Source: Desulfobulbaceae bacterium (GTDB lineage Bacteria > Desulfobacterota > Desulfobulbia > Desulfobulbales > Desulfocapsaceae). From it: 64,000 bases of DNA. The stretch lies in contig JALSMA010000013.1 in NCBI GenBank assembly GCA_026988015.1, positions 1 to 64,000 on the forward strand, in the 5' to 3' direction. The notes beneath the pieces are model-generated. The model was not told the DNA's origin, ran no database searches, and saw only the letters and a program-made list of their open reading frames with translations. A program made the translations under genes and the position numbers. Below are positions 15,649-41,203 of this stretch, in pieces (the stretch's first letter is position 1; the number at the start of each line of letters is the position of its first letter).

Positions 15649-15853
15649 ACCTGCACCTGTCCTGAAATGGCCTTCTTCCCCTGACTCTTCGTTACTTTGA
15701 AGAATTTTATCCTTGGAGTATCAGCCCTATACTTGCGATAAATTCTCTTCGGTACCTCGATTCAGAAGAAAAAATCTCATTTATGGACGGAACTAAACTA
15801 CCCATTTCTCTGTCAAATCCCAAAAATTTACAGCTATAGAAAAAAGTATAAAA

Positions 15854-17056
15854 ATGTCTCCCGGAGAACGTTCCCTTCTGCAGGTGACCTGTTTTGGTCA
15901 TTTTGTCAGCCATTTTAATATGCTGGTATTTCCGGCGGTCCTTCTACCCCTCACCACTCGTATGGGAATGGGGCTTGTTGAAACGCTGGCGCTTTCATTC
16001 TGGATGTACCTGCTATTTGGGGTAACAGCCCTGCCATGGGGTATGCTTGCAGATCGTTTTGGCTCCCGTCCTCTGCTTATTCTCTTTCATTCCGGGGCTG
16101 GTTGCTGTGGGATTCTTGCCGCTTTTAATGTATCTGACCCTGCGGTGTTTGCCTTTTGTCTTACAGGGATTGGATTCTTTTCAGGTATTTACCATCCAGT
16201 GGGATTAGGTTGGATAGCAAAAAAGATTGAAAACACCAGCAGGGGGATGGCCCTGAACGGGATGTATGGAAATCTGGGGCTTGCGGCAGCTCCGCTGCTT
16301 GCCGGTTCTGTGAACTTTCTCTGGGGCGTTGAGGCTGTTTATATGGTTCTTGGTGGTGTGAACCTTACCGGTTTGCTCCTCTTGTATCTTGTGCGTAACG
16401 GCCATGCACAAAAACAAAAAATCTCTCAGGCAGGAGGGCAGGTCAGGGACAGCCTTAAACCATTTATGGTCCTTTTGCTGGCCATGATGCTCGGGGGGGT
16501 GGTGTACCGGGCCACCACGGTAACTCTGCCAGCATATTTTGAACTGCAGAATCGGGATTTGTATCAGATGTTTCTGGGGTTTTCAGGACAGCTGGGTTCT
16601 GCCAATCTTTTTGCCACCCTTATAACATCAATAATATATCTCATTGGTATGGCTGGACAATATTATGGAGGAAGGGTAGGCCAGAAATTTGATCTTGGCA
16701 GGGGGTATCTTCTTTTTCATCTGGTTACTATTCCGGCGGCACTTGCTATGGCCTGGACCAGTAATACACCACTAATCATCTTTGCCATGATCCACTCTTT
16801 TTTTTTACTTGGGATGCAACCACTGGAGAATACTCTGGTGGCCAGGCTTAGCCCTCCGAAACTGCACTCATCAGCCTTTGGGTTGAAATTTGTCCTCACC
16901 TTCGGAGTGGGGGCTCTCAGCGTAAGTATGGTGGGTGGTATAAAAGAGATCTTTGGCTTGAACGCAGTGTATATAGCCTTGGCGTTGGTCTCTGTCTGCC
17001 TCGTTTTTGTAATTATGCTGCTTAATCATTACCGTCGTCAGCAGACGTTGTTGTAG
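15854..17056 (+). CDS. Major facilitator superfamily transporter
   Basis: A 400-residue inner-membrane transporter with 12 predicted membrane segments. Motif A appears as GMLADRFGSRPLL between segments 2 and 3. FFSGIYHPVGLGWIAKK in the first half is the conserved block of the fosmidomycin-resistance-like (Fsr) subgroup, and the second half shows the usual loop GGRVGQKFDLGRGYLLFH. Its substrate cannot be read from sequence; Fsr relatives export small phosphonates or other drugs, but in anaerobes such proteins are often annotated only as MFS. The ATG at 15854 has no strong ribosome site. The gene converges on glnS with 40 bases between the stops. Confidence 0.88.
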   Translation: MSPGERSLLQVTCFGHFVSHFNMLVFPAVLLPLTTRMGMGLVETLALSFWMYLLFGVTALPWGMLADRFGSRPLLILFHSGAGCCGILAAFNVSDPAVFAFCLTGIGFFSGIYHPVGLGWIAKKIENTSRGMALNGMYGNLGLAAAPLLAGSVNFLWGVEAVYMVLGGVNLTGLLLLYLVRNGHAQKQKISQAGGQVRDSLKPFMVLLLAMMLGGVVYRATTVTLPAYFELQNRDLYQMFLGFSGQLGSANLFATLITSIIYLIGMAGQYYGGRVGQKFDLGRGYLLFHLVTIPAALAMAWTSNTPLIIFAMIHSFFLLGMQPLENTLVARLSPPKLHSSAFGLKFVLTFGVGALSVSMVGGIKEIFGLNAVYIALALVSVCLVFVIMLLNHYRRQQTLL

Positions 17057-38805: not shown

Positions 38806-40089
38806 TTATTTATGGTTTGCTCTCATGGTTCTGGCAAGTTCTTTGATCTCACCTAAATCTTCAGTCATCATATTCCATCCGTACCAATAGGCATAGTCAG
38901 GATTTATATGAAAGAATGCCTGATAAGCCCTCATGCGATGTTTCATATACATACGCAGCAGAACCTGATCAATGAAGGAGAGTCTGTCAAGATCTTCATT
39001 CCAGGCAGCACCGTTGGTATGCATGAAAGAGAGGAGGAAGGGGTAGTTGAACGGATAACTTTCCGGTTTTTTAATGATCCCTTCTTTGTAGAGCGCGGCA
39101 ACCGTCTCAATGGCCTCTGCCATCAGACGATCAGCTTTACCAAGGATGGAGTCGCCCATCTCGAGCTGTTTTTTTGCGTAGTTCTCAGAGTGACACTGAG
39201 TACAGGTCTTGATCATTTTATTACGTTCTTTATCCCAGGAAGCCTGGTCAAGACGGGCCATATCAACGGCTTTTACTGCGTCAAGAATAGGAGTGCCCTC
39301 ACCTGTTTCCGGGTCAAGTACGCCAAGTGCCTTGAGAATGGTTACTCGGTCAGCTGCTTCCTGTTTATCTTCAGGGAGCGGCAGGCGAACACCAAGGAAA
39401 CCCCATGCAGTATGGTTTTCATGGGTGCCATCTGGAAGATGACAGGTCTGACAGGTGGGAGCCACAGCGCTCTGTGGCAGATCACCGGCCTGTTTTGCAA
39501 AGTAACGCATGCCGTGTTTTGAGCTGGACCACATTTCCCACTGAGGATGGTCGTAACCCATGTGGCACTGCTGGCAGGCACGGGGATTATTAGCCTCTTT
39601 TTTAGAGAAGGTATGGCGGGTGTGACATTCGTCACAGGAGTTAACCTGATAGCGGTAGCCCTTTGCCAGCTGGTCTTTCTTTTGTTCTTCGGTTTTAATA
39701 CCCATGTTATGGCATCCACCACAACCCCGGCCACCTTCAATGAGTTCGTCGGGTGCCATGTGAGTTGCAGGAATGGCATTTAAGGCTGTCCATCCAAAAT
39801 TATGTTTGCCCTTGCTGAAAGAGTCATATTGTTCCTGATGGCACTCGGCACAGACAGCTTCGTCAGGCAGGACAGCTTTCATGGAGTCTTCTGCTGTGGA
39901 ATGCTCATTACCGTGACATGTAGAGCAAGTAACATCATTTTCAGAGTGTTTTGAAATTTTCCAGTCGTTAACCATGCCAGGTGATACTTTTGTGTGGCAA
40001 TCAACACATGTGTCTGCAGCTCCGGCAATTCCTGCCGTACCAAACAGAGCAAAAGCGCCTGCCACCAGTACTGTCTTCAATTGAATCAT
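38806..40089 (-). CDS. Octaheme cytochrome c, hydroxylamine oxidoreductase family
   Basis: Periplasmic multiheme cytochrome. A Sec signal peptide (LKTVLVAGAFALFGTAGIAG, cut near AGA-AD) is followed by eight CXXCH heme sites in order: CVDCH, CSTCH, CAECH, CGGCH, CDECH, CQQCH, CQTCH, CTQCH. This count, the spacing and the helical C terminus (MRAYQAFFHINPDYAYWYGW) fit the HAO/octaheme family, which includes hydroxylamine oxidoreductase, hydrazine dehydrogenase and the reductive epsilonproteobacterial form. Without an ammonia-oxidising context a reductive role on nitrite or hydroxylamine is more likely, but this rests on family knowledge. The start ATG 40089 lies just after GGAGGG; one at 40101 adds four residues. 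No quinol-oxidising partner adjoins it. Confidence 0.88.
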   Translation of the reverse strand: MIQLKTVLVAGAFALFGTAGIAGAADTCVDCHTKVSPGMVNDWKISKHSENDVTCSTCHGNEHSTAEDSMKAVLPDEAVCAECHQEQYDSFSKGKHNFGWTALNAIPATHMAPDELIEGGRGCGGCHNMGIKTEEQKKDQLAKGYRYQVNSCDECHTRHTFSKKEANNPRACQQCHMGYDHPQWEMWSSSKHGMRYFAKQAGDLPQSAVAPTCQTCHLPDGTHENHTAWGFLGVRLPLPEDKQEAADRVTILKALGVLDPETGEGTPILDAVKAVDMARLDQASWDKERNKMIKTCTQCHSENYAKKQLEMGDSILGKADRLMAEAIETVAALYKEGIIKKPESYPFNYPFLLSFMHTNGAAWNEDLDRLSFIDQVLLRMYMKHRMRAYQAFFHINPDYAYWYGWNMMTEDLGEIKELARTMRANHK

Positions 40090-40370
40090 CTTCCCTCCCA
40101 ATGGTGAAAATGGTCATGTTTTCTGCCGTTGTCGCCCTTCGACAAAGACTGTTTCCTATAAATGAAAATGTATAATGCGAATAGAACCACATTTCTTTGA
40201 CATAAGTCAAATTAAATGGAAGGCAAATTTTTTTTCCCCGAAGGATCGCTTGGTTGGCTCTATAATGAGAATCATATTCGGAGTAGATTTAATTGTGGTC
40301 TTCCCTTGTCAGATAGCCGCTTTTAAGGTAAAAAGAAGCAGGGTAATTATTAGAATGCAAGGAGGGTGGA

Positions 40371-41203
40371 ATGAGTGAGCAAGCAGCAGAGGATACGGTG
40401 AAGGATGATGGGGGGAAGGCGTCTTTTGAGTCGCAGGCCCTGACGGGACATCTCCGGGATCTTCGCTCCTGTCTTATTAAATCATTTATAACCATTATTG
40501 CCGGCTTTGCGCTATCCTACGCTTTTATAAAACCCATAGGGACCTGGTTTTTTAAGCCGCTTATTGAGGTCCTTCCCGACTCCAGCTCCCTCATCTTCAC
40601 CTCCTATCAGGAAGGGTTTTTTTTTATCTAAAGCTCGCACTTGTCTGTGGATTACTCTTTGCCACTCCCGTCATTTTCTATCAAATATGGCGCTTTGTGG
40701 CGCCTGGACTTTACAAACATGAAAAACGCGTAATTGTTCCTTTTACCTTTCTTTCAACCATCTGCTTTCTTGGTGGGGCTGCTTTTGGCTATTTCGTCGT
40801 TTTTCCACCGGCTTTTAAATTTCTTGTAGGATACTCAAATGAGTATCTTGCATCTATGCCTGCGGTGAGTGAGTATTTTTCCCTTGCATTGCGACTTCTC
40901 ATCGCCTTCGGGGTGATTTTTGAAATGCCGATCCTGATGGTGTTTCTTGCTAAAATGGGTGTGGTTACGGTCTCCTTTCTGAATAAAAATCGTAAATATG
41001 CCATTCTGATAAACTTCATCATCGCAGCCATTCTCACTCCAACCCCCGATGTGGTAAATCAGTTGATGATGGGTATCCCACTCCTGATTCTATATGAAAT
41101 CAGTGTGGTCTCTGTCTACTTCTTTGGTAAAAAAACCTTTCTTGGTTTTACGGAGGAGGAAAACGGAGAATCAGATACGGAACTACTTGAAAACAAAGAA
41201 TAA
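40371..41203 (+). pseudogene. tatC: tatC, Tat translocase subunit, split by a one-base frameshift
   Basis: TatC binds twin-arginine signal peptides and forms the core of the Tat export system. The first frame (40371-40631) gives the N terminus through LTGHLRDLRSCLIKSF and SLIFTSYQEGFFF, then stops after GGG plus nine T. One more T would restore the frame (FFFYLKLALVCGLLFATPVIFYQ) and the rest, with FVAPGLYKHEKR, FGVIFEMPILMVFL and the last membrane segments, runs to 41203. Everything after the T-run is intact, with no other lesion, so it is either a sequencing error in the homopolymer, a recent mutation, or a gene read by slippage at T9. No tatA or tatB adjoins it. It is divergent from the cytochrome gene. 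Confidence 0.88.

What the first reader, a model, noticed from the sequence alone, without database searches (positions are those of the whole stretch)
40600..40640. tatC broken at a run of nine T
The frame is lost exactly at GGG followed by T9 and restored by a single added T; the remainder is intact. T9 or A9 runs are known sites of polymerase slippage, and a Tat exporter is probably needed for periplasmic redox enzymes. The gene could therefore be decoded by slippage, or the base was lost in sequencing.
Basis: partly seen in the sequence, partly recalled or inferred. Interest (0 to 1): 0.5.

Follow-up and report, generated by a model that had tools for sequence, protein, structure and literature searches.

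The report
Order-wide programmed frameshift in tatC
A gene for a protein-export channel looks broken by one missing letter in a run of nine Ts, but most of the related bacteria examined carry the same break at the same place, so it is probably a kept, working frameshift and not an error.

Summary
Window 40371-41203 is a tatC whose frame is lost at GGG-T9 (40617-40625), with a zero-frame stop three bases after the run. It is not a sequencing slip. Of 80 relatives found by protein similarity, 75 have the same break in the same register, including 7 of 7 isolate genome records. With further, non-random samples the count is 102 of 113 loci (101 of 111 distinct sequences): run T9 in 99, T10 in 2. 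All 24 loci read from outside the order are in frame. The tree needs six changes, read as one gain and five restorations. Controls inside the gene show selection: Phe codons in the run never changed between TTT and TTC, against 14-22 changes at other Phe sites; the stop-giving Leu codon changed 20 times but left the stop class once, against 8-23 class changes at other Leu sites. Full-length TatC therefore most likely needs a programmed frameshift. I favour RNA-polymerase slippage over ribosomal -1 shifting, but sequence alone cannot decide. Two intact paralogues exist. The literature searches listed nothing on tatC recoding. RNA and protein data are needed.

The parts
40360..40365 (+). AGGAGG, ribosome-binding site before the ATG at 40371
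   Evidence: read from the sequence
40371..40631 (+). zero-frame ORF: first part of TatC (86 aa), ending just after the run
   Evidence: TatC profile positions 2-58
40609..40616 (+). purine-rich AGGAAGGG abutting the run; GGG in 78 of 102 broken loci, GCC in 11, GGC in 8
40617..40625 (+). T9 run, the shift site; holds the zero-frame heptamer T TTT TTT
   Evidence: T9 in 99 and T10 in 2 of 101 distinct broken sequences
40629..40631 (+). zero-frame stop TAA, made by the Leu-Lys codons CTA AAG of the -1 frame
   Evidence: immediate stop in 89 of 92 broken loci; class changes 1 against 8-23 at control sites
40619..41203 (+). second part of TatC in the -1 frame, from the Phe codons of the run to the stop
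   Evidence: TatC profile positions 56-208; dN/dS 0.01-0.14 in the 20 closest pairs

Best explanation
tatC of this order is a programmed-frameshift gene. It gives two products: an 86-aa first part that stops just after the T9 run, and full-length TatC made after a net shift of one base. The most likely agent is RNA polymerase: when its RNA-DNA hybrid is all rU:dA it slips back and adds a U, so that a fraction of the mRNAs can be read straight through. Shown by sequence: the conserved break, constraint on the run and on the zero-frame stop, purifying selection on the part behind the break. Inferred: that the full-length protein is made, that the shift is transcriptional, and that the ratio or the short product is useful.
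For: Same break and register in 75 of 80 similarity-sampled relatives, 7 of 7 isolate records, 102 of 113 loci in all. Pattern in 197 of 257 genomes of the order against 1 of 257 for the reversed pattern, and in 0 of 379 sampled genomes of the phylum outside the order. Six state changes on the tree. Run Phe codons: 0 TTT/TTC changes against 14-22 at five other Phe sites; stop-giving Leu: 20 codon changes, 1 class change, against 8-23. Part behind the break under purifying selection. Only 15 of 92 broken loci have any ATG/GTG/TTG within -15 to +8 codons of the break in the second frame, 1 of 92 an ATG, so separate translation is unlikely. For polymerase slippage: run of at least 9 in 101 of 101 distinct broken sequences; efficient slippage at 9 A or T in vivo (PMC5009743 section 43); single-base insertions prevail in homopolymer runs (PMC5574713 passages); no consensus RNA structure; at most T8 in the 10 distinct in-frame sequences.
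Against: No RNA or protein data. The run also holds a ribosomal slippery heptamer, and Phe-Phe-Phe-Tyr demands the T run under either model. G before the run, which would suit a polymerase pause (G-10, PMC12288461 passage), is not general: 10 of 10 loci of seven other family codes have GCC. Three of 92 broken loci lack the immediate stop (L127, L128, L133). The genome has T9/A9 runs in open frames elsewhere. RNAalifold gave about zero in every window of the gene, so it had little power, and folding dips mildly (mean z -0.83 and -0.92) 30-90 bases after the run. Two intact paralogues could supply TatC.
Confidence: 0.62

Rival explanations
1. Programmed -1 ribosomal frameshifting: tRNA-Phe in P and A sites slip back one base on U UUU UUU; the mRNA stays U9.
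For: The heptamer T TTT TTT is in the zero frame of the run; an AGGAAGGG element abuts it; mild folding dip 30-90 bases downstream. PMC3711429 section 19 reports up to 63% frameshifting of A-run cassettes in E. coli without saying for each whether it is transcriptional.
Against: No consensus structure after the run (low power). The purine element ends 2 bases before the heptamer, whereas about 10 bases is usual for -1 stimulation (recalled, from no call).
Confidence: 0.3
2. Two-chain TatC: both ORFs are translated separately and assemble; no shift is needed.
For: The break lies between helix 1 and helix 2, where the second part begins to match the solved TatC 4b4a at residue 61 (helix limits recalled).
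Against: 15 of 92 broken loci have any start codon within -15 to +8 codons of the break, 1 of 92 an ATG; in the window the first start in that frame is GTG 40697, inside the conserved core. Five restored lineages are fused.
Confidence: 0.04
3. Phase variation: T9/T10 changes in DNA switch the gene off and on.
For: Long T runs are likely hypermutable (PMC1088944 passage).
Against: 101 of 101 distinct broken sequences are in one register and none of the 10 distinct in-frame ones has a run of 9 or more. One genome per species was seen, so variation within strains was not tested.
Confidence: 0.02
4. Sequencing error, or a dying pseudogene covered by the intact paralogues.
For: Homopolymer runs are a usual error site (general knowledge); two intact paralogues.
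Against: Same break in 7 of 7 isolate records and in separate metagenome assemblies; dN/dS 0.01-0.14 in the 20 closest pairs; selection on run and stop.
Confidence: 0.02

Closest known systems
Two-ORF dnaX genes of the GeneTack survey (PMC3711429, section 19 part 1 read) and dnaX of Thermus thermophilus (PMC1088944 passage)
   Same: Homopolymer run in a chromosomal housekeeping gene; recoding needed for the long product in the two-ORF form.
   Different: Run of A in the sense strand, not T; DNA polymerase subunit; in T. thermophilus slippage makes the short product. Here the gene is tatC, and the run length is 9 or 10 over a whole order.
Transcriptional slippage in secretion-system genes (spa13 of Shigella, PMC5009743 passage; tssM of Citrobacter rodentium, PMC4256274, search listing only)
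   Same: Slippage yields length variants of parts of an export machine.
   Different: Other export systems; here the TatC channel subunit, with an old origin at the base of an order.
prfB +1 programmed ribosomal frameshift (PMC12421855, search listing only)
   Same: Frameshift in a core gene, widely conserved, with a stop codon at the shift site.
   Different: prfB shifts +1 at CUU UGA beside an SD-like element (recalled); here the shift is -1 (one base gained) on T9, and the stop follows one codon later.

Membership tests
TatC (PF00902, TIGR00945) | profile match over the whole family length | tested here: met
   the two parts match adjoining stretches of Pfam (2-58, 56-208) and TIGR00945 (1-58, 57-215); the first part alone is under the TIGR00945 cut-off (27.1 of 132.7 bits)
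programmed transcriptional slippage genes | homopolymer run of about 9 A or T at the frame change | tested here: met
   T9 in 99 and T10 in 2 of 101 distinct broken sequences
programmed transcriptional slippage genes | conserved in position and register among relatives | tested here: met
   75 of 80 loci
programmed transcriptional slippage genes | mRNAs of mixed run length | not testable with these tools
   no RNA reads available
bacterial programmed -1 ribosomal frameshift | slippery heptamer in the zero frame | tested here: met
   T TTT TTT within the run
bacterial programmed -1 ribosomal frameshift | stimulatory structure downstream (not always present) | tested here: inconclusive
   no consensus structure (low power); mean z -0.83 and -0.92 at 30-90 bases, in 31 of 92 loci folded
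bacterial programmed -1 ribosomal frameshift | frameshift on a U9 mRNA by the ribosome | not testable with these tools
   needs in-vitro translation
phase-variable homopolymer gene | run length differs so that frames differ between relatives | tested here: not met
   one register in 101 of 101 distinct broken sequences; 10 in-frame ones have runs of at most 8

The most novel reading that the evidence does not exclude
The frameshift is a control device and not a tolerated flaw: it sets a fixed or responsive ratio between a short one-helix TatC fragment, which could occupy or regulate Tat complexes, and the full channel subunit. It would tune Tat export across a whole order of sulfur-cycling bacteria, cable bacteria included, and would have done so since the order arose.
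Probability: 0.3. Interest if true: 0.85.

Novelty: new member of a known kind. Interest (0 to 1): 0.72.

Why it matters
A core export gene reads as broken in most genomes of a bacterial order that were examined, so automatic annotation is likely to call it a pseudogene or two fragments. An order-wide programmed frameshift in a non-mobile housekeeping gene comes with natural controls (about five restored lineages, two codon contexts before the run, intact paralogues) and with cultured hosts. That makes a general question testable: why a frameshift is kept where gaining one base in a T run should be an easy way back.

Tried and rejected
RNA structure as stimulator: local folding of 31 of 92 broken loci and RNAalifold on 92 gave no clear structure. 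A pairing of GGG with CTC across the run was considered, because CTC is enriched two codons after the stop-giving Leu (52 of 80 Leu codons there), but nothing supports it and the CTC stays unexplained. Synonymous bias also peaks at Ser -5 and at two sites far behind the break (codons +44 and +45), so bias alone does not mark the site.

Polymerase pause element: GGG is favoured in the first 92 broken loci (78 of 92, against 21.4% of 954 Gly codons), which would fit G-10 and Y-1 (PMC12288461 passage). Ten loci of other families all have GCC, and the next base is A and not the consensus G, so the idea is partial at best.

Independent-pairs tests of codon choice against frame state had only 4-5 pairs and cannot reach significance; I rely on the site controls.

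Literature: searches with tatC or Desulfobulb plus recoding terms were made; general recoding, pausing and slippage are. Several listings were capped (30 of 38, 15 of 42, 12 of 470, 15 of 21, 12 of 16, 12 of 270 shown). None listed tatC recoding. Seen: PMC3711429 (outline, section 19 part 1, passages), PMC5009743 (section 43 and passages; only the first 300,000 of 475,107 characters are held), passages only of PMC4066793, PMC10924467, PMC5574713, PMC1088944, PMC6336406 and PMC12288461. Supplements were not seen. Sharma et al. 2011 (PMC3199440) is not held.

Full report
WHAT IS THERE. Window 40371-41203 encodes TatC in two frames. The first ORF (40371-40631) begins after AGGAGG, runs for 86 codons through GGG and nine T (40617-40625) and ends at TAA 40629-40631. 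The rest is open in the -1 frame to 41203. The parts match adjoining stretches of the TatC profiles, and the second part matches solved TatC structures (4b4a residues 61-225).

SECOND COPIES. The genome (G000, 3.15 Mb, 99.8% complete) has two other tatC genes, both intact, 37% and 38% identical to the query. One (C24) lies beside a tatA/B gene, two more tatA/B genes are on C42; the other (C86) lies near what reads as serS (name recalled). The gene order regulator, GIY-YIG, tatC, class II aldolase, epimerase is shared with Desulfosediminicola flagellatus L051; the aldolase and the cytochrome beside tatC were tested by Pfam, the other names are read from the translations.

NOT AN ERROR. A protein search with the second part alone gave 80 contigs of one-per-species genomes (the best 80 of 121 were kept). 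In 75 of 80 the first part is in another frame, always in the same register, with T9 (74) or T10 (1); 5 are in frame. A DNA pattern of the site occurs in 197 of 257 genomes of the order and the reversed pattern in 1 of 257; six genomes have two places, so not each place is tatC. Of the 60 genomes without the pattern, 4 were already read in frame and 56 were searched: 22 have the orthologue, 16 broken with other bases around the run and 6 in frame. Ten more loci, chosen from genomes that carry the pattern so as to reach seven other family codes, are broken, 10 of 10; since the pattern includes the stop, they are no independent test of break or stop. With the window, 102 of 113 loci are broken. 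Two pairs are duplicates: 101 broken and 10 in-frame distinct sequences. Only the 75 of 80 comes close to an unselected figure, and those 80 are the nearest relatives. Broken loci were read in 12 of the 15 family codes of the order (f1-f9, f11, f12, f15); f10 was in frame in its one genome, f13 had no orthologue in two genomes, and in f14 one genome was in frame and one with the pattern was not read. Isolate records L051, L073, L074, L077, L082, L089, L096 and the cable bacteria L106 and L109 are all broken at T9.

HOW OLD. In a phylum sample of 395 genomes the pattern is in 11, all among 16 members of the order; 0 of the other 379. The 24 orthologues from outside the order that were read are in frame; further listed matches outside the order start at query residue 4 or later, as expected if in frame, but were not read. 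Trees of 127 and 137 rows (quick method, many weak branches, long branches warned of) need six changes; with the outgroup in frame this reads as one gain at the base of the order and five restorations, at least four changes being forced by well supported branches. The name Desulfobulbales comes from the titles of the relatives' records and from recall; the genome itself is unnamed.

SELECTION ON THE SITE. On 92 broken loci the two run Phe codons scored in the second frame changed between TTT and TTC 0 times; five other Phe sites changed 14-22 times. The Leu codon whose CTA or CTG makes the zero-frame stop changed 20 times and crossed between A/G-ending and C/T-ending once, against 8-23 crossings at five other Leu sites. 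The immediate stop is present in 89 of 92; L127, L128 and L133 stop further on. Over 102 loci the codon is CTA 64, CTG 35, CTC 2, TTT 1, while CTA is 2.6% of 2335 Leu codons in the second part. Behind the break dN/dS is 0.01-0.14 in the 20 closest pairs; over 421 pairs with dS 0.05-1.2 the median is 0.18 (maximum 0.48), from ungapped windows, so distant pairs are overestimated. T runs are likely hypermutable (PMC1088944 passage), so a neutral break should have reverted often; about five restorations are seen. That argues, without proof, that the shift is useful.

WHICH MECHANISM. A net gain of one base is needed. Polymerase slippage is efficient at nine A or T (PMC5009743 section 43), and single-base insertions prevail in homopolymer runs (PMC5574713 passages). 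No conserved structure was found, with little power, and there is a mild folding dip 30-90 bases downstream. On the other side, the run holds a U UUU UUU heptamer, and the protein sequence Phe-Phe-Phe-Tyr forces the T run under both models. L131 has Ala GCT before the run and Asn for Tyr, and its run still counts nine in a shifted position: a hint from one case that length itself matters. G before the run would fit a pause, but ten loci have GCC. T9/A9 runs in open frames elsewhere show that the cell tolerates such runs. I put polymerase slippage at 0.62 and ribosomal shifting at 0.3; that it is programmed by one or the other I hold above 0.9.

WHAT IT IS LIKE. It works like the two-ORF dnaX genes of PMC3711429 (section 19). 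It meets the sequence criteria for slippage genes; the RNA criterion could not be tested. 'tatC' does not occur in that paper's main text nor in the held part of the Atkins review, and searches listed nothing on it.

Noticed in passing
L040, L047, L048, L049, L114/L137, L129, L130, L139, L140, L143: In-frame tatC copies inside the order, read as about five restorations. All 10 distinct ones have a T run of at most 8, so the run was broken up or shortened along with the return of the frame.
   Followed up: partly
L106 near 6115 and L109 near 6106: Cable-bacteria tatC has an A9 run about 100 bases behind the T9 run, inside the open second frame.
   Followed up: no
window 16798-16806: Another T9 run, inside an open frame (15797-17056) that stays open.
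   Followed up: no
window 38806-40101, minus strand: A multi-haem cytochrome gene lies divergently before tatC; it is not at that place in L051, whose gene order is otherwise the same.
   Followed up: no
window 40634-40636 and relatives, second Leu codon behind the run: CTC in 52 of 80 Leu codons there in broken loci and in 0 of 11 in-frame loci; no explanation found.
   Followed up: partly
G000 C42:1675-2035 and C24:30185-30325: The tatA/B genes are not beside the frameshifted tatC: two in tandem on C42, one beside the C24 paralogue.
   Followed up: no
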